Below, piece after piece: positions 9,338 through 17,675 of a DNA stretch of 17,675 nt. Below the pieces are notes generated by a model. It made no database searches and was not told where the DNA came from. It saw nothing but the letters and a program-made list of their open reading frames with translations. The stretch is from Caryophanales bacterium UBA6985 (GTDB taxonomy: Bacteria > Bacillota_I > Bacilli_A > RF39 > UBA660). The stretch lies in the NCBI GenBank assembly GCA_002450035.1, contig DJYF01000011.1, positions 1 to 17,675 on the forward strand, in the 5' to 3' direction. The first letter of the stretch is position 1. Each line of letters begins with the position of its first letter. The position numbers and the translations under genes are program-made.

Positions 9338-9363
9338 TTTATATGTGAAAGAAAGTGAAGAAG

Positions 9364-10590
9364 ATGGAATATCATAAATTAGATAATATTGGTACTTTTT
9401 ATGCATCTACATCAAGTAAACCTAATCCTGATATCTTTAGATTTACAGCAATTATGGCAGATAATGTTGATAAAACTTCTTTAAATAAAGCATTGAAAGA
9501 TACTATAAAACAATATCCTAGTTTTAATTCATCTCTTAAAATGGGTTTCTTTTGGTATTATTTAGATGAACAAGAAGATATACCTGAAGTTGAAGAAGAA
9601 AATCTTCCTGTTTGTAATAGATTAGATTTATATGCAGATGATGTTTTATATAGACTTAATTACTATAGAAATAGAATTAATTTAGAAGTGTCTCATATAT
9701 TATCTGATGGAAGAGGTACTTTAGAATTCTTTACTTGTTTAATTGAAAACTATTGTAGTATTAAATATAAAATTAAAAATTTAAAAACAGGACCTGTGGC
9801 ATCTTTATTAGAACGTGAAGAAGATTCTTTTGATAAATACTATGAAAAGACTTCTAAACCAGCTAAACCTAAACAAAAAATATATAATATAACTGGTAAG
9901 AAATTAAAGAGAAATAAAATAAGATTTATATATATGCATACAAGTGTAGAAGGTGCTTTAAAATTTAGTAAAGAGAATAATACTACTTTAACAGTTGCTC
10001 TTGCTGCTTTATATATAAAATCTATTATTAAAACTATGAAGTATAAGAATAAAGGGGAAGTTATTAGAATAGCTGTTCCTGTTGACTTAAGAGGATATTA
10101 TTACTCAAAGACTACAAAGAATTTTTTTGGTATGGTTCATGTTGATTATATTTATCAAGATGAAAATGTAAGTGCCAAGGAAATAATAAAGTGTATAGAT
10201 GAGCAATTGAAGGATTCACTTAAGAAAGAAAACATTAATAAGAGAAGTAATCAAATGTTTGGATTAGTAAAGAATGTAGTAGTAAGAAGTATTCCTTTAA
10301 TAATTAAGAATGTAGGTTTAAGAGTAATTGCTAACTTCACAGAGAAAATGACTACATCTAATATTTCTAACTTAGGTAAATTTAAGTTTAAAAAAGAAGT
10401 AGAAGATTATATAAAAGGAATAGAATTATCTACCAATACAAGTGGATTACAATTAGTAGTATGTTCTTATAAAGATGATTTATGTATAAGTGCTTCTTCT
10501 AGGTTTGCTAAGAGTAATGTGCTTAACTACTTTGTTCAAGAATTAAAAGCCCTTGGACTAGAAGTAAGTATTGTTACAAATGGGGTGTAA
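9364..10590 (+). CDS. Condensation-fold acyltransferase (alcohol acetyltransferase-like)
   Basis: This protein of about 408 residues resembles the AATase/PapA/condensation (chloramphenicol acetyltransferase-like) superfamily, which moves an acyl group from CoA or a carrier protein to an alcohol or amine. The catalytic HxxxDG motif is HILSDG at 111-116, in the context EVSHILSDGRGTLEFF. A C-terminal SNISNLGKF stretch (about residues 336-344) is typical of this group. The soluble chain has no signal peptide. The frame also allows a GTG start at 9355 (three more residues), but AAAGTG at 9352-9357 gives ATG 9364 a better ribosome site. The next gene starts 2 nt after the stop, so the two are probably made together. 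Substrate is unknown; a lipid- or ester-modifying role is inferred. Confidence 0.75.
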   Translation: MEYHKLDNIGTFYASTSSKPNPDIFRFTAIMADNVDKTSLNKALKDTIKQYPSFNSSLKMGFFWYYLDEQEDIPEVEEENLPVCNRLDLYADDVLYRLNYYRNRINLEVSHILSDGRGTLEFFTCLIENYCSIKYKIKNLKTGPVASLLEREEDSFDKYYEKTSKPAKPKQKIYNITGKKLKRNKIRFIYMHTSVEGALKFSKENNTTLTVALAALYIKSIIKTMKYKNKGEVIRIAVPVDLRGYYYSKTTKNFFGMVHVDYIYQDENVSAKEIIKCIDEQLKDSLKKENINKRSNQMFGLVKNVVVRSIPLIIKNVGLRVIANFTEKMTTSNISNLGKFKFKKEVEDYIKGIELSTNTSGLQLVVCSYKDDLCISASSRFAKSNVLNYFVQELKALGLEVSIVTNGV

Positions 10591-10592
10591 TC

Positions 10593-11240
10593 ATGAGATG
10601 TAATAATTGTGGTGTAGAAGTAAATTCAAGAGGTAAAAGATGTCCTCTTTGTAATAATCCTTTAGAAGGAAAAGTTAAATCATATGCTTTTCCTGCTATT
10701 AAAAGAAAAAAGAATACATTCTTAAAAGTAGTATTATTAATATCTTTAATTGCTCTTTTAGTAACAGGATATATAGATTTTGAATTCAATCATAGATTTA
10801 GTTGGAGTAGAATTGTTTTACTTGCTTTAGTATCTAATTATATTTCTTTATACTATATTACTAATAGTTATAAAGATGTATTGTTGCTCCTTTGTAGATA
10901 TGGACTAGTCGTAATAGGAATAATATTTATTTGGTATTATGTTACTCGTTGGACTTTTATTCCCGATATAATTATTCCTACTTTATGTTTAGTTGAACTA
11001 ATTTTTTCTGATGTTGTAGCATTTATAATGAAGAGAAATCATATAAGAAAGTATTTAAGTGTATTACTTTCTAATATATTTTTATCATTTGTACCAATGA
11101 TATTAGTTATATTTAATATAACTACAATAGATATTCTAGCTCATATAAGTATATTATTATCAATTGCTAATTTAATAGTATTAATACTATTTGATTATAA
11201 TGATGTTAAAGAAGAAATATTAATGATATTTAATTATTAG
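10593..11240 (+). CDS. Zinc-ribbon membrane protein (DUF6320-like)
   Basis: This 215-residue protein has a cytoplasmic N-terminal zinc ribbon with two CxxC knuckles, C3/C6 and C17/C20. A basic linker (28-41) leads to about six hydrophobic helices near 44-60, 70-90, 97-117, 125-147, 155-175 and 182-202. The layout matches DUF6320-type proteins, which I recall being encoded beside alcohol-acetyltransferase-like genes; this recollection should be checked. The start is 2 nt after the acyltransferase stop, with GGGGTG overlapping that stop as ribosome site. Function is unknown. A membrane partner or scaffold for the acyltransferase is an inference from adjacency. Confidence 0.7.
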   Translation: MRCNNCGVEVNSRGKRCPLCNNPLEGKVKSYAFPAIKRKKNTFLKVVLLISLIALLVTGYIDFEFNHRFSWSRIVLLALVSNYISLYYITNSYKDVLLLLCRYGLVVIGIIFIWYYVTRWTFIPDIIIPTLCLVELIFSDVVAFIMKRNHIRKYLSVLLSNIFLSFVPMILVIFNITTIDILAHISILLSIANLIVLILFDYNDVKEEILMIFNY

Positions 11241-11247
11241 GTGTTAT

Positions 11248-11757
11248 ATGGAAATAAGAAATTATAGAAAAGAAGATATAGAAAAACTTGTAGATTTTAC
11301 TTCTTATATGTTTAAAGTAACTTATAAAGGTATTATTAATAATGAATATATTGAAAGCTTTTGTAAAAAAAGAGAAGAAAGAATAGAATTAGAACTTAAA
11401 GACTTTGATAGAAGATGCAAGAATGTATTTGTTTTAATAGAAAATGATAAACTAATAGGTTATATAGAAGTAGATAAATGTAAACATGAGAAATATAAAG
11501 ATCATGGTGAAGTTGCAATGATATATTTAGATCCTTTTTATCAAGGAAGAGGACTCGGAAAAGAACTATTCCGTGTTGGAGTTAATAGACTTAAAGAAAT
11601 GGGTTATAAGGACTTCTATGTTGGATGTGTAAGAGGAAATGAAAGTCAAAAGTTTTATCATCATATAGGTGGTGTATACGTATTTAGTAAACCTCTTATA
11701 TTTGGTGATATGTATATAGAAGACTACTTTTATTTTAAAGATGTTAATATGTTTTAA
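11248..11757 (+). CDS. GNAT family N-acetyltransferase
   Basis: This 169-residue GNAT belongs to a different subgroup from the earlier one. The acetyl-CoA loop is YQGRGLGKELF (98-108), following strand AMIYLDP (90-96). Motif B is CVRGNESQKFYHHIGGVYV (127-145), where the Asn and Tyr positions are typical of GNATs with small-molecule or peptide acceptors. Residues 1-60 form the acceptor-side helices and are lysine/glutamate-rich. It is third in the acyltransferase operon, with ribosome site AGGTG overlapping the previous stop (TAGGTG). Its last codons and stop lie inside the terminator hairpin. Acceptor unknown. Confidence 0.87.
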   Translation: MEIRNYRKEDIEKLVDFTSYMFKVTYKGIINNEYIESFCKKREERIELELKDFDRRCKNVFVLIENDKLIGYIEVDKCKHEKYKDHGEVAMIYLDPFYQGRGLGKELFRVGVNRLKEMGYKDFYVGCVRGNESQKFYHHIGGVYVFSKPLIFGDMYIEDYFYFKDVNMF

Positions 11758-11779: not shown

Positions 11780-11808
11780 TTGATAAAATGGTCATTTTGT
11801 GCTATTAT
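11780..11808 (+). promoter_or_regulatory. Near-consensus promoter of the tandem alarmone synthetase gene
   Basis: The -35 box TTGATA (11780-11785) and -10 box TATTAT (11803-11808) are separated by 17 nt, with TGC at 11800-11802 giving an extended -10 as well. This is among the two best promoter matches in the window. Start near 11815 leaves a leader of about 26 nt with GGGGGA (11828-11833) as ribosome site. Confidence 0.75.
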
Positions 11809-11840
11809 CTAATAACACTTAAAAAAAGGGGGAAATTTTC

Positions 11841-13175
11841 ATGGAATTTGTTAAAAATATGATTTATAAGACAAATACTGAGATTAGTGATGATAATTTA
11901 AAAGAATTTAATGACTCTTTATTTATATATGAAACAGCCATGAAAATTCTTAATACTAAACTTGGTATTATCGAGTCTGAGTATGATAGAGATAAGATGC
12001 ATAATGACTTACAAGGTATTAAATGTAGAATTAAGTCTCGTGAAAGTATACTTAAAAAACTAGAGAAAAATGGTCATGATTTTTCAATTGAAAATATTGA
12101 AAAATATTTAAATGATGTGGTTGGAGCAAGAATAATTTGTTTAACAGAAGATGATGTATATAGTATTGTTAAAATGATAAAAAGTGTTCCTAGTATAAGA
12201 GTTATTCAAGAAAAAGACTATATTGCTAATCCTAAAGAATCTGGTTATAGATCTTACCATATTATTATTGAAATAGATGTACCTTTAGTAAATGGTCAAA
12301 CAGTTCCTGTTAGAGCAGAAATACAAGTTAGAACAATTTTAATGGATGCTTGGTCAAGCTTGGAACATGAGATTATTTATAAGAATAAAGATTGTACTGA
12401 AGAATCTAAAAATAGACTTAGAGATTATAGTTATGAGCTTGCTTTTGTTGAAAAGAATATGTCTCAAACAAGAGAAAGAGAACTTACTTCAGGAGATGAC
12501 GTAAAAGTAAGACATGTAATTGATAGTAAAGAATTAAAAAACTTTAAAGAAAACTTATATATTTATGATGCAGCTTCAATGATACTTGAGTCATACATAG
12601 ATATTATTAAGTCTGAGTATGATAGTCTTGGAAATTACTCTGATATTCAAAATATTAGATTTAGAACTAAGAGTATCGAAAGTATAGATGAAAAATTAGT
12701 TAATAATAACTTAGAGTTTACTTTAGACAATATAAGAGATTCTATTAAAGATGTAATAGCTGCAAGAATAGTATGTTTAGACTTAGAAGACGTAAAGAAA
12801 ATTGTTGATTTATTAACAATGTATCCAGGTATTAATATAATTGAAAGTAAGGATTATATTACTTTTCCTAAAGAATCTGGTTATAGATCTCATCATTTAA
12901 TAGTTGAAATACCTGTTGAATTATCAAGTGGTACTATTAATGTTAAGGCGGAGATTCAAGTTAGAACTATTTTAATGGATGCTTGGGCTGCCTTAGAACA
13001 TGAAACTATTTATAAAAATAGAAGTTGTTCAGATGAGTCAAGACAAATGCTTAGAACTTATAGTTATATTTTATCTAGCATGGATCATAATATGGTAGGT
13101 ATTAAGAAAACAGAAGTTAGTAATTTAACTAATTTAGCAGATGATGATGTTAAGAAGAGAGTGAAATCAAAATAG
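11841..13175 (+). CDS. Tandem double-domain RelA/SpoT small alarmone synthetase
   Basis: This 444-residue protein holds two consecutive RelA/SpoT synthetase domains and no HD hydrolase, TGS or ACT domain. Single-domain small alarmone synthetases (RelP/RelQ type), which make (p)ppGpp from ATP and GTP/GDP, are normally about 200-260 residues. Domain 1 (about 21-206) has R63-x-K65, D92 in DVVGARI, KDYIANPKESGYRS (125-138, with base-stacking Y136) and E160 in AEIQVRT. Domain 2 (about 233-417) repeats these at an offset of 211-212 residues: R275-x-K277, D304, K337, Y348 and E371. Its DVVGARI reads DVIAARI. By hand alignment about 95 of 187 positions are identical, so this is an internal duplication. 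A charged linker (207-232) joins the halves. It is a monocistronic unit with its own strong promoter and terminator. Confidence 0.93.
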   Translation: MEFVKNMIYKTNTEISDDNLKEFNDSLFIYETAMKILNTKLGIIESEYDRDKMHNDLQGIKCRIKSRESILKKLEKNGHDFSIENIEKYLNDVVGARIICLTEDDVYSIVKMIKSVPSIRVIQEKDYIANPKESGYRSYHIIIEIDVPLVNGQTVPVRAEIQVRTILMDAWSSLEHEIIYKNKDCTEESKNRLRDYSYELAFVEKNMSQTRERELTSGDDVKVRHVIDSKELKNFKENLYIYDAASMILESYIDIIKSEYDSLGNYSDIQNIRFRTKSIESIDEKLVNNNLEFTLDNIRDSIKDVIAARIVCLDLEDVKKIVDLLTMYPGINIIESKDYITFPKESGYRSHHLIVEIPVELSSGTINVKAEIQVRTILMDAWAALEHETIYKNRSCSDESRQMLRTYSYILSSMDHNMVGIKKTEVSNLTNLADDDVKKRVKSK

Positions 13176-13198
13176 CGATTTATTTTACTCTCTTTTTT
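13155..13198 (+). terminator. Rho-independent terminator spanning the alarmone synthetase stop
   Basis: A 13-bp stem pairs 13155-13167 (AAGAGAGTGAAAT) with 13182-13194 (ATTTTACTCTCTT), with one G-U pair. The 14-nt loop contains the TAG stop (13173-13175), and a T6 run ends at 13198. The left arm is coding sequence. Confidence 0.85.
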
Positions 13199-13206
13199 GT
13201 TATAAT
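13198..13206 (+). promoter_or_regulatory. Extended -10 promoter of the orphan/CDF unit
   Basis: TGT-TATAAT at 13198-13206 shares its first T with the terminator T-run. There is no usable -35 box. Predicted initiation near 13213 coincides with the ribosome site GGTGAAG (13213-13219), so the leader would be about 11 nt. Confidence 0.65.
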
Positions 13207-13223: not shown

Positions 13224-13493
13224 ATGAATAAAGGAATAAATGTGGAAAGTCCTGAATTTAAGAATGCAAGTAGCAGGGAATACTATGATAAATGGATGGA
13301 ACCTTACATGGGTTATGACTATACTAAAATAAATAAAGATAATGCAAAAGCTTATAGAAAAAATATTAAAGAAAGTTATAAATGTGATGGTATAGATAAT
13401 AATAACCAAGTTGAAAAAGAGTTAAATCCTTATTTAAAAGAAATGAAAGATTTAGTAAATAGAAAAGAGAATAAAAATGAAGAAAAAAACTAG
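13224..13493 (+). CDS. Hypothetical 89-residue charged protein
   Basis: I do not recognise this protein. It has 89 residues, is rich in Lys, Asn, Glu, Asp and Tyr, and has no membrane segment or signal peptide. The N-terminal half carries an aromatic cluster, YYDKWMEPYMGYDY at 20-33. The C-terminal half (from about 62) looks helical and very polar, ending in a KENKNEEK tail. There is one cysteine (C54) and no clear domain. A promoter, a GGTGAAG ribosome site 4 nt ahead of the ATG, and a 17-nt overlap with the following cation-efflux gene support it as a real gene. A role linked to that transporter is only a guess. Confidence 0.6.
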   Translation: MNKGINVESPEFKNASSREYYDKWMEPYMGYDYTKINKDNAKAYRKNIKESYKCDGIDNNNQVEKELNPYLKEMKDLVNRKENKNEEKN

Positions 13494-14598
13494 AAGTTCT
13501 GTTATTGTTAAAACAAGTATAATAGGAATATCTTTAAATATATTACTTGTTATAATTAAAACTATAATTGGATTTGCAGTTAATTCAATTGCAATTATTA
13601 CAGATGCTGTTAATAACTTAACAGATGCTTTATCTTCAATTATTACTATAGTTGGAACTAAGCTTGCATCTAAAGCACCAGATGTTTCACATCCTTTAGG
13701 ACATGGAAGAATAGAATATCTAACTTCTATGGTGATTGCACTTTTTGTTATGTTTGCTGGATTTGGAGCATTCTTAGAATCATTTAAAAAGATTCTATCA
13801 GGAGATGTACCAAATTATAATATAACTACTGTAATAATTTTAATATTTGCAATATTAGTTAAAGTATTTATATTCATTTATTATAAAAGAAAAGGTAAGG
13901 AAACTAATTCTTCAAATTTAATCAATAGTGGTATAGATGCTGGATTTGATGCAATTATTTCTGTGAGTACTTTACTTGCTGTTTTAATATTTATGTTTTC
14001 TAAAGGTAAAATTTGTATTGAAGCATATCTTGCTTTAATAATTTCCTTACTAATTATTAAATCTGGTGTAGGAATGATTAAAGATGCTATTAGCATTATT
14101 TTAGGTAAGAGAATAGATAAAGATTTATCTTATAAAGTTAAGAGTGTAGCATCTTCATTTGAAGAAGTAGAAGGTGTATATGATCTAGTTTTAAATAATT
14201 ATGGCCCTAATTCTTATATTGGTTCATTCCATGTTGAAGTTGATGAAAGTATGAACGCTGTTGAAATAGATGTATTAACGAGAAAGATAACTAAAGAAGT
14301 ATATGATAAAACAGGAGTAGTTGTTTCAGCAATTGGAATTTATTCACTTAACAAAAAGGATAAGAAAGTTATAGAAATGAAGAAACAAATTGATGAGATA
14401 TTAAGTAAATATCCTGAGGTGTTATCAACTCATGGTTTCTATGTTAATGAAGAAGAAAAAACTATTAATATAGATATCATTATTAGTTTTGATTCCAAAA
14501 ATAGATTTGATACTTTTAAGGCTATTGAAAATGAGATTGGTGAATCATTTAAAGATTATAAATTATTTGCTGTGTTAGATGCAGATATGAGTGACTAA
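13477..14598 (+). CDS. Cation diffusion facilitator family transporter
   Basis: This 373-residue CDF antiporter exports divalent metal in exchange for protons. It has six probable helices between about 10 and 207: 10-32, 35-60, 82-101, 117-136, 157-174 and 181-205. The membrane metal site is D43 with N47 (TM2, TDAVNN) and D154 with D158 (TM5, DAGFD). A DxxxD pair in TM5 is more typical of Mn/Co/Fe-type than Zn-type members, and Asn at the second TM2 position is a departure. The HPLGHGRIEY signature (72-81) is the conserved cytoplasmic loop. The C-terminal cytoplasmic domain is long (about 212-373), with two ferredoxin-like halves, the second starting near STHGFYV. Its start lies inside the end of the orphan gene. 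Confidence 0.92.
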   Translation: MKKKTRSSVIVKTSIIGISLNILLVIIKTIIGFAVNSIAIITDAVNNLTDALSSIITIVGTKLASKAPDVSHPLGHGRIEYLTSMVIALFVMFAGFGAFLESFKKILSGDVPNYNITTVIILIFAILVKVFIFIYYKRKGKETNSSNLINSGIDAGFDAIISVSTLLAVLIFMFSKGKICIEAYLALIISLLIIKSGVGMIKDAISIILGKRIDKDLSYKVKSVASSFEEVEGVYDLVLNNYGPNSYIGSFHVEVDESMNAVEIDVLTRKITKEVYDKTGVVVSAIGIYSLNKKDKKVIEMKKQIDEILSKYPEVLSTHGFYVNEEEKTINIDIIISFDSKNRFDTFKAIENEIGESFKDYKLFAVLDADMSD

Positions 14599-16009: not shown

Positions 16010-16240
16010 GTTGAATTTAAAGACATGGAACAAGAGGAGTAAAATAGAAACTACTTCTAGAAAGAAAAAGTCGTTGGCTGGAAGCTTTTTCAAGAAAGAC
16101 TATTTGAAGGTAGCTTGGGAGTCGTTATATTGAATTTAGTAGATATGAACGTTAAACTCGCGTTAAGAGTAATTGAGTATAATAAAAGGTGGTACCACGG
16201 TCATGCGTCCTTTAAGATGTTTGATACGTGGTTTTTTTAT
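16010..16240 (+). promoter_or_regulatory. T-box riboswitch leader, specifier GUC (valine)
   Basis: This leader fills most of the 312-nt gap between tag and the HD gene. Uncharged tRNA-Val binding should favour an antiterminator and permit expression. Visible parts are the GGAGTA element of Stem I (16036-16041); Stem I pairing of CTACTTC (16051-16057) with GAA-g-GTAG (16106-16113); and a distal hairpin AAAAAG/CTTTTT (16065-16070 with 16085-16090) with GTTGGCTGGAA in its loop. The specifier candidate GTC is at 16121-16123 after TTGGGA. The T-box core GGTGGTACCACG lies at 16188-16199; its UGGU implies an A discriminator base, as in tRNA-Val. The specifier is inferred from position; the valS gene downstream agrees. 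No further gene is seen in the gap. Confidence 0.92.
16194..16238 (+). terminator. Regulatory terminator of the T-box leader
   Basis: ACCACG (16194-16199) pairs with CGTGGT (16227-16232), with inner helices TCA/TGA and GCGTC/GATGT and a T7 run at 16232-16238. The left arm overlaps the T-box core, so formation excludes the antiterminator. Confidence 0.88.
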
Positions 16241-16251
16241 GAGGTGATAAT

Positions 16252-16956
16252 ATGGATAAGGAAATAGAGATTTTTAATGATTATTATTCAAAATTTGATG
16301 ATGAAGAATTAAATATTCATTTGAAATATGATCACACTTTTCGAGTGGTCGGTTATGCAGAAAGAATTGCTAAGTCACTTAGTTTAAGTGAGGAGGACGT
16401 CACTCTTGCAAAAGTATGTGCATTATTTCATGACATTGGAAGATTTGTTCAATGGAGAGATTATCAAACTTTTGAAGATTTTAAAAGTGTTGATCATGGA
16501 GATTTAAGTGCATCTATTCTTGATTCACTTGGCTATGAAAATAATATAGTTAGAATTGCAATTAAATATCATAACAAATATGCAATTCCAGATGATTTAA
16601 GTGAAAGAGAAAAGATGTTTTGTAATATTACAAGAGATGCTGATAAGATTGATATTTTAGAAACTCAAAAGATTTATGATATTACTGAGTCTGTTTATAA
16701 GATGAGTCCTGAGATAAAAGAAGACATTGATAATGAAAGACTTGTTGATAATAGAAAATATGATAAAGATGGGTATAGTTTATATAAATATTTCTCATTT
16801 CTTTATGATTTAAATTATCCTGAATCATTCAAAATATTAAAAAAATTAGATTTAATTAATAAACAATTTGATATTGTTGCTAATATATGTGGTGAAGAGT
16901 TTGTAAAAGATTATAGAAAGAAATTTAATGATTATTTAAAAGAAAGGATTGGTTAA
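16252..16956 (+). CDS. HD-domain metal-dependent phosphohydrolase
   Basis: This 234-residue cytoplasmic protein has an HD phosphohydrolase core: H28 in DHTFRV, H60-D61 in FHDIGRF, the further histidines H82 (VDHGD) and H107 (KYHNKY), and D129/D131 in RDADKIDIL. The extra histidines suggest a two-metal site like those in HD-GYP or nucleotidase members, but no GYP motif is present. The alarmone-hydrolase signature HDxxEDT is absent, so it should not be called a ppGpp hydrolase. Residues about 145-234 are helical with no known motif. The substrate is not predictable. It lies 12 nt downstream of the Val T-box leader, with GAGGTG at 16241-16246, and is followed 2 nt later by valS. It is therefore expected to be induced by valine-tRNA starvation. 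Confidence 0.82.
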
Positions 16957-16958
16957 TT

Positions 16959-17675
16959 ATGTTAGAAACTAAATATGATTATAAAAAAGTAGAAGAAAAT
17001 AAATATAACACTTGGAAAGAAAAAGGTTATTTTAATTCAGGAGATAAAGAAAAAGATCCATTTTGTATAGTTATTCCACCTCCAAATGTAACAGGTAAAT
17101 TACATATAGGTCATGCATATGATGTATCTATTCAAGATGCAATTGTTAGATATAAGAGAATGAGTGGGTTTGATACTTTATGGTTACCAGGTATGGACCA
17201 TGCTGCTATTGCAACAGAAGCAAAAGTAGTTAAGAGACTTAAAGATAAAGGTATCGATAAATACGAATATGGTAGAGAAAAATTCTTAGACGCTTGTTGG
17301 GATTGGACTCATGAATATGGAGACAATATTAGAAATCAATGGGCTGCTATGGGTGTATCTGTAGACTATAATAAAGAAAGATTTACTTTAGATGAAGGAA
17401 TGGCTAAAGCGGTTAATAAAGTATTCATTGATTTTTATAACAAAGGGTTAATTTACCGTGGTGAAAAGATTATTAACTGGGATCCAGCTGCTCAAACAGC
17501 TTTATCTAATGAAGAAGTAATTTATTCCGAAGAAAAGAGTGCATTCTATCACTTAAAATATAAGATAGTTGGAACTGATGAATATTTAGATGTTGCAACT
17601 ACAAGACCTGAAACACTATTTGGGGATACAGCAGTTGCTGTTAATGAAGAAGACGAAAGATATAAAAAATATATT
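16959..17675 (+). CDS. valS: Valyl-tRNA synthetase, N-terminal part (3' truncated by window edge)
   Basis: ValRS charges tRNA-Val with valine in the cytoplasm. The 239 residues visible of a protein normally near 880 include the class I motif [13 protein letters not shown] (40-52, HIGH at 49-52), [13 protein letters not shown] (75-87), INWDP (172-176) and the start of the editing domain at [11 protein letters not shown] (213-223). PGxDHAxIAT and NWDPxxQTALSxxEV favour ValRS over IleRS or LeuRS, and the T-box specifier agrees. The start ATG 16959 lies 2 nt after the HD gene stop, with AAAGGA at 16943-16948. The KMSKS region, anticodon-binding domain and C-terminal coiled coil lie beyond the window. 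Confidence 0.96.

What the first reader, a model, noticed from the sequence alone, without database searches (positions are those of the whole stretch)
11841..13175. One gene encodes two complete RelA/SpoT alarmone synthetase domains in tandem
Seen: residues 21-206 and 233-417 align almost without gaps at an offset of 211-212, with about 95 of 187 identities by hand count. Both halves keep RxK, the Asp of DVxxARI, KDYI..PKESGYRS and AEIQVRT. Known: RelP/RelQ-type synthetases are single-domain proteins, and RelQ works as a tetramer with an allosteric site between subunits. Inference: a covalent dimer could fix subunit pairing, allow one half to be regulatory, or give different GTP/GDP preference. 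I do not know of a described tandem synthetase of this form.
Basis: partly seen in the sequence, partly recalled or inferred. Interest (0 to 1): 0.75.

Follow-up and report, generated by a model that had tools for sequence, protein, structure and literature searches.

The report
Two-in-one bacterial stress-signal synthetase
One bacterial gene carries two complete copies of an enzyme domain that makes the (p)ppGpp stress signal, and relatives suggest that such double enzymes formed more than once, often with the second copy decaying, which gives a natural way to test what the partner subunits of these enzymes do.

Summary
The ORF at 11841-13175 (+) encodes 444 aa with two RelA_SpoT synthetase domains (residues 21-211, 233-422), 103/207 identical; no other Pfam domain is found, and AlphaFold2 folds both (pLDDT 88.9, pTM 0.85). 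It is no artefact: of 121 proteins examined (query plus 120 listed homologues) 102 are tandem, 331-474 aa, down to 30% identity. Both halves resemble RelP (YwaC) more than RelQ. Nine ATP/Mg/guanosine residues of S. aureus RelP are present in both halves. AU tests reject a shared N|C split for the four clade pairs tried, so tandem forms arose, or were homogenised, separately. Decay is one-sided: N halves keep all nine residues in 96 of 99, C halves in 28 of 99 (19 of these in the window's clade), single-domain relatives in 131 of 133. Losses hit the ATP side (His190, Ser84, Arg112); the G-loop Tyr is lost in none of the 99. In the window's clade itself the C half lost the Gly of DxxGxR (0/21, against 20/20 N halves). 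The listings of eight literature searches showed no tandem synthetase. Activity, oligomer and role are inferred, untested.

The parts
11841..13175 (+). CDS, 444 aa, tandem RelP-like small alarmone synthetase
   Evidence: one ORF, two PF04607 stretches
11901..12473 (+). N-terminal synthetase domain (residues 21-211); active-site set R63 K65 S69 K73 D92 R97 Y136 E160 H176
12474..12536 (+). linker (residues 212-232)
   Evidence: domain limits; the model shows helix to 217, coil to 228, helix from 229
12537..13106 (+). C-terminal synthetase domain (residues 233-422); active-site set R275 K277 S281 K285 D304 R309 Y348 E371 H387 present; Gly of DxxGxR replaced by Ala307
11780..11808 (+). candidate sigma-70-type promoter TTGATA-17-TATTAT with TG before the second hexamer
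   Evidence: pattern match only (21 sites found in the region, 17.5 expected by chance)
11825..11832 (+). candidate ribosome-binding site (AAAGGGGG) 8 bases before the ATG
   Evidence: sequence printed; by eye
13152..13199 (+). hairpin plus U-run overlapping the stop codon, candidate intrinsic terminator; suggests a one-gene transcript
   Evidence: -16.2 kcal/mol, z -3.9, 0 of 200 shuffles as stable; the terminator pattern scan found no site

Best explanation
The gene encodes a RelP-type (p)ppGpp (and probably pGpp) synthetase in which two synthetase domains, born by duplication or fusion of related single-domain synthetase genes, are joined in one chain. SHOWN from sequence and model: two complete folds; nine ATP, Mg and guanosine contact residues of S. 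aureus RelP are present in each half; at the tenth, Arg91, the N half has Lys and the C half Asn; the C half has also lost the Gly of DxxGxR; both G-loops carry the RelP-type proline. INFERRED: the chain takes the place of two neighbouring subunits, and two chains form a pseudo-tetramer like the RelP homotetramer; the N half is the main catalyst; the C half is still nucleotide-binding and probably active, possibly slower or with a shifted ATP site; with a RelP-type G-loop the enzyme needs no pppGpp activation, so its output is set mainly by transcription from its own promoter. The benefit of the tandem form is an asymmetric pair: once joined, the C half is free to drift at the ATP side while keeping the guanosine side, as happened in other tandem clades.
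For: Two domains, nothing else; all 99 tandem proteins of A2 (of 102) match RelA_SpoT, and five other families match 1-3 members weakly. Closest solved structures of each half: YwaC/RelP, 142 and 134 bits, against 95 and 83 for YjbM/RelQ. Fold. Nine-residue set in both halves, kept in 19 of 19 gap-free members of the window's clade (2 of 21 gapped) although it has diverged to mean identities of 0.67 (N) and 0.66 (C); 9 of 9 sites are invariant where 62 (N) and 64 (C) of 188 columns are, about 3-4e-5 if the sites were random columns. RelP-type proline in 21/21 N and 19/20 readable C halves of the clade, Asp not Asn at the RelQ N148 position in 21/21 and 20/20. N/C asymmetry in the family: 96 against 28 of 99 complete; Gly of DxxGxR kept in 20/20 N, 0/21 C halves of the window clade and 130/132 single-domain relatives. 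Probably a stand-alone unit.
Against: No activity, oligomer or expression data. The tetramer is by analogy; the tool folds monomers and gave no inter-domain error map or coordinates. Both halves being complete in the window's clade argues against a settled catalyst/regulator split there. The careful tree does not settle whether N and C of the window's clade are each other's nearest relatives (44% of bootstraps, not rejected, p-AU 0.41). Guanosine-site contacts beyond Tyr151 were not taken from a paper. Promoter-like sites are about as many as chance gives.
Confidence: 0.6

Rival explanations
1. Catalyst plus regulator: only the N half makes alarmone; the C half is a nucleotide-binding pseudo-synthetase that senses GTP/(p)ppGpp and tunes the N half.
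For: In other clades C halves lose ATP-side residues (of 99: H190 in 51, S84 in 29, R112 in 25) but in none of the 99 the G-loop Tyr151 or the Mg Asp107. In the window clade the C half lacks the DxxGxR Gly in 21/21, and the window's C half has Asn at Arg91. AF2 still folds the degenerate C half of P0086.
Against: The window clade keeps the full nine-residue set in the C half in 19 of 19 gap-free members, which relaxed catalysis would not predict.
Confidence: 0.25
2. Two active synthetases with split work: the halves differ in acceptor (GTP, GDP or GMP) or in product.
For: Both sets complete, with a fixed difference between halves around the ATP site (N95/C307) and, in part of the clade, beside the G-loop Tyr (N138/C350: Ser in 19/19 N, Ala in 13/19 C).
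Against: No residue known to set acceptor choice was tested.
Confidence: 0.1
3. A toxic SAS (toxSAS/CapRel-like) that pyrophosphorylates tRNA or ATP, for example in phage defence.
For: PADLOC candidate-defence profile PDC-S33 matches with 147.3 bits over two stretches; CapRel chains appear in the fold lists.
Against: PDC-S33 is not selective: in the control all six single-domain relatives tried match it with 69-89 bits, about half of the two-domain score. Match to the solved CapRel is about 30 bits, to YwaC about 140. No fused antitoxin domain, probable own promoter and terminator. The contig lengths listed for relatives suggest linkage to a housekeeping rlmN region.
Confidence: 0.04
4. The tandem duplication is an assembly or annotation artefact.
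For: None found.
Against: Halves only 50% identical; 102 of 121 proteins examined share the architecture, including a 90% cluster whose longest contig is 741,729 bases.
Confidence: 0.01

Closest known systems
RelP / SAS2 / YwaC (SasA), single-domain small alarmone synthetase
   Same: Sequence (best PDB hits), fold, ATP/Mg/G-loop residues, G-loop proline
   Different: RelP is one domain (PDB chains of 210-237 aa) forming a homotetramer; here two domains share one chain
RelQ / SAS1 / YjbM
   Different: RelQ's pppGpp-site Asn148 is Asp in both halves; G-loop proline present; single domain
Long RSH (Rel, RelA, SpoT)
   Same: SYNTH domain
   Different: No HD, TGS or ACT domains here; one SYNTH domain in the long proteins
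CapRel / toxSAS
   Same: Synthetase fold; CapRel appears in the fold lists
   Different: CapRel is a fused toxin-antitoxin that senses a phage protein (abstract opening of PMC13423816), not two synthetases; weak sequence match
Dual-domain SAS of Mycobacterium smegmatis (title and abstract opening of PMC7591505 only)
   Same: A SAS inside a two-domain protein
   Different: There the partner domain is RNase HII (recalled), not another synthetase

Membership tests
Small alarmone synthetase (SAS), SYNTH superfamily PF04607 | RelA_SpoT domain above the curated cut-off, no HD/TGS | tested here: met
   188.6 bits against 27, two stretches, no other family
Small alarmone synthetase (SAS), SYNTH superfamily PF04607 | ATP/Mg/guanosine residues of SaRelP (R78 K80 S84 K88 D107 R112 Y151 E174 H190) | tested here: met
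   9/9 in each half; the tenth, R91, is Lys (N) and Asn (C)
Small alarmone synthetase (SAS), SYNTH superfamily PF04607 | (p)ppGpp synthesis in vitro | not testable with these tools
   needs the purified protein
RelP (SAS2) | Closer to RelP than RelQ by sequence | tested here: met
RelP (SAS2) | G-loop proline (Pro146 of SaRelP) | tested here: met
   P131 and P343, paper section
RelP (SAS2) | Single-domain protein | tested here: not met
   two domains
RelP (SAS2) | Homotetramer | not testable with these tools
   only monomer prediction available
RelQ (SAS1) | pppGpp-site residues Phe42, Thr44, Asn148 (BsRelQ, PMC5794853) | tested here: not met
   window protein: N half Gly59, Lys61, Asp169; C half Asn271, Arg273 and Asp
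RelQ (SAS1) as NCBI GTPPhKinYjbM | Score above NF053588 cut-off | tested here: not met
   256.4 bits against 320
toxSAS / CapRel | Adjacent or fused antitoxin | tested here: inconclusive
   no fused domain; the 89-aa downstream ORF matches no Pfam, NCBIfam, PADLOC or PHROGs family and lies after the hairpin, but was not tested as an antitoxin

The most novel reading that the evidence does not exclude
Tandem small alarmone synthetases are a separate, unrecognised architecture that has arisen several times, probably within Firmicutes. Linking two subunits repeatedly lets the C-terminal copy give up ATP handling (ribose His, adenine Arg, phosphate-contact Ser) while keeping the guanosine G-loop, making it a built-in guanosine-nucleotide/alarmone sensor for the catalytic N half. 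The window's clade would be an early or arrested stage of this route, with both sites still armed but the donor-side Gly already lost in the C half.
Probability: 0.35. Interest if true: 0.75.

Novelty: new variant of a known kind. Interest (0 to 1): 0.58.

Why it matters
RelP and RelQ are homotetramers of identical subunits, so a mutation hits every subunit at once. A covalent pair lets each site be knocked out on its own, which makes the questions of subunit cooperation and alarmone feedback directly testable. The one-sided decay of the C half (28 of 99 complete, against 96 of 99 N halves; in 6 of the 9 groups no C half is complete) suggests that a full second ATP site is often dispensable while the G-loop side is kept, a specific hypothesis about regulation. 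It also warns annotators: these genes carry the same domain label as ordinary SAS.

Tried and rejected
Artefact: rejected. Long RSH fragment: rejected, no HD/TGS/ACT found. RelQ-type allostery: the three residues checked are not present. toxSAS: CapRel match weak; the PADLOC PDC-S33 match (147.3 bits) looked like support until the control, where six of six single-domain relatives match it too. Prophage or plasmid origin: the 44 viral-contig loci carry one domain each in the ORFs found (two degenerate patterns only, so tandem genes could be missed); the hits I saw in 39 plasmid and 30 phage records (10 rows of each) are about 480-700 bases long, one domain; GC of the gene (0.264) matches the window (0.272).

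Taxonomy: no genome is held for the window. The genome-contig scan (close relatives only) gave 7 loci: six single-domain SAS ORFs and one long ORF of 785 aa. No tandem seen in 398 genomes of one phylum (E limit 1e-30, so distant tandem clades could be missed), 198 of an order (match list cut off before its end) or 398 of a class (profile A1, E limit 1e-65). Two odd rows there, G080 (match through 4 stops) and G464 (open frame 490 aa), were fetched and carry one domain each; the loci also have one domain each. These groups are unnamed, overlap, and the window's lineage was probably not sampled (best RlmN identity 59%). The only organism hints are 'Bacilli bacterium' on P0077 and on P0313, 73% identical to the window's RlmN. 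So taxonomic spread was not mapped.

One origin for all tandem forms: rejected for the four pairs tried. Concerted evolution (gene conversion) instead of separate duplications was not excluded; P0060's two halves group together inside clade C (support 85). That N and C of the window's clade are sisters is supported but not in the careful tree, so I do not rest on it. P0122-P0125, 'single' proteins inside the window clade, look like broken or cut tandem genes; they were left out of the singles but were among the 136 singles (133 gap-free). P0104 was dropped before the counts (partial internal repeat).

Literature: eight searches were answered. Of PMC3153485 I saw passages only (no 'tandem', no 'two SYNTH'), of PMC5794853 outline, passages and two sections, of PMC6793942 passages, of other papers only listings and abstract openings. 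Subscription papers are mostly not in the library.

Full report
OBSERVATION. The window holds one ORF at 11841-13175 (+), 444 aa. Pfam finds RelA_SpoT twice and nothing else. The halves align over 207 positions with 103 identities, score 507 against at most 70 in 200 shuffles of one half, and 405 of 621 identical bases. Profile limits are residues 21-211 and 233-422.

THE UNIT. A promoter-like site with TG before the second hexamer lies at 11780-11808 (such sites are not above chance in number: 21 found, 17.5 expected), a G-rich site sits 8 bases before the ATG, and a stable hairpin with a U-run covers the stop codon at 13152-13199 (-16.2 kcal/mol, z -3.9; the terminator pattern scan found none). 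The gene is probably transcribed alone. Neighbours are a GNAT acetyltransferase (11248-11757), an 89-aa ORF without a Pfam, NCBIfam, PADLOC or PHROGs match (13224-13493) and a cation efflux protein (13477-14598).

RELATIVES. A search of about 5.8 billion proteins gave 1230 matches, of which the best 120 are listed. Of these plus the query (121), 103 have two domain hits and 18 one; with P0104 dropped as a partial repeat, 102 are tandem: 99 of 411-474 aa and three shorter, 331-370 aa. How many of the unlisted matches are tandem is unknown. Of the 102, 99 were scanned and all match RelA_SpoT; five other families match 1-3 members weakly. The longest contigs listed for P0002, P0004 and P0005 (741,729, 29,280 and 37,384 bases) equal in length those listed for window-like RlmN proteins P0240, P0244 and P0245, which suggests, but does not prove, linkage to the rlmN region.

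ACTIVE SITES. PMC5794853 (passages and sections) names the SaRelP contacts Arg78, Lys80, Ser84, Lys88, Arg91, Arg112, His190 (ATP), Asp107 and Glu174 (Mg) and Tyr151 (guanosine). In the window's protein each half has nine of ten; Arg91 is Lys in the N half and Asn in the C half. Arg91 itself is variable in tandem proteins (Arg in 16 of 102 N and 17 of 102 C halves; Lys in 50 and 24), so I left it out of the count. Counting the other nine in the 99 tandem proteins without gaps at these sites: N halves complete in 96, C halves in 28; of the 28, 19 are the window's clade (19 of 19), 6 clade B (of 39) and 3 clade H (of 3); single-domain relatives 131 of 133. Losses in C halves, summed over the clades: His190 51, Ser84 29, Arg112 25, Arg78 3, Lys80 2, Glu174 2; Lys88, Asp107 and Tyr151 none. 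N halves lost only His190, in 3. So the decay is one-sided and mostly on the donor (ATP) side. Clade D C halves have also changed His155 and Gln176 equivalents, so there the guanosine side may be altered too.

THE WINDOW'S CLADE. Its C halves keep all nine residues while diverging to a mean identity of 0.66, so they are under constraint. Still, a scan of columns conserved in 132 single-domain relatives shows a fixed change: the Gly of DxxGxR (Gly in 130/132 singles and 20/20 N halves) is Ala or Leu in 21/21 C halves. It lies between the equivalents of the Mg-binding Asp107 and the adenine-stacking Arg112. The C half is thus armed but not identical in its donor site. The same scan shows fixed changes in the N half too (for example N204 Glu where singles and C halves have Asp), so not all drift is in the C half.

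ORIGIN. In a FastTree of 335 domains (100 N, 101 C, 134 single; 5 short ones dropped, P0104 left out) N and C halves of the same tandem clade fall together: window clade 0.961 (with the four cut 'singles' P0122-P0125 inside), a clade of 26 domains 0.998, one of 81 0.993 (with three C halves of group H inside), P0075/P0082 1.0. A quick IQ-TREE of 95 rows agrees (A 95*, C 100*, E 100*, B 84 with one H row inside). In a careful tree of 65 rows C and E (100/100), F (100/96) and B (94/87) hold, but the window clade is not one side of a branch (44% of bootstraps; holding it together is not rejected, p 0.41). A shared N|C split is rejected for window clade vs C (p 7.1e-6), vs B (0.0017), vs E (1.7e-7) and B vs C (3.5e-4) (groups chosen after seeing the tree, which makes these p values optimistic). 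So tandem forms arose several times, or were homogenised separately; gene conversion is not excluded. Clade D differs: its N and C halves lie apart (own identity 0.24) and may be older or a fusion of unlike genes.

DISTRIBUTION. Tandem forms were not seen in 398, 198 and 398 sampled genomes of three overlapping unnamed groups (limits in Tried and rejected), nor in 44 viral loci. The host is probably an uncultured member of the Bacilli (names on P0077 and P0313 only).

MECHANISM. Most likely a RelP-like synthetase whose two linked domains form one half of a pseudo-tetramer, the N half fully catalytic, the C half still binding nucleotides and probably active. The family trend suggests that linkage lets the C half become a guanosine-side sensor. 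All steps after residue presence and fold are inference.

DEFENCE CONTROL. The PADLOC candidate profile PDC-S33 matches the window protein (147.3 bits), but also six of six single-domain relatives (69-89 bits) and tandem P0060 and P0086 (167 and 119 bits), so it tells the domain, not a defence role.

NOVELTY. No tandem SAS showed in the listings of eight full-text searches of the open library; subscription papers are mostly not covered, and larger SAS subfamily surveys (recalled) could not be read here except passages of PMC3153485. I rate it a new variant of a known kind.

Noticed in passing
window 16017-16215 (+): T-box leader (RF00230, 103 bits) ahead of an HD-domain protein (16252-16956) that directly precedes a valyl-tRNA-synthetase-like ORF running off the window end (16959-17675; named by eye). 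An HD-domain gene between a T-box and a tRNA synthetase gene is unusual to my knowledge.
   Followed up: no
window 9355-11240: 411-aa protein without a Pfam or NCBIfam hit followed by a DUF6320 protein; looks like a condensation/acyltransferase-like pair by eye.
   Followed up: no
P0122-P0125: Single-domain proteins inside the window's tandem clade that end in unrelated tails, stop mid-domain or begin in the linker: they look like broken or cut tandem genes.
   Followed up: partly
P0060: Its two halves group together within clade C, hinting at gene conversion or renewed duplication.
   Followed up: no
clade B C halves: Ser84 equivalent lost in 27 of 39, often to Arg, a recurrent change at an ATP phosphate contact.
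   Followed up: no
PADLOC profile PDC-S33: This candidate anti-phage profile matches ordinary single-domain alarmone synthetases, so annotation by it could mislabel housekeeping enzymes.
   Followed up: partly
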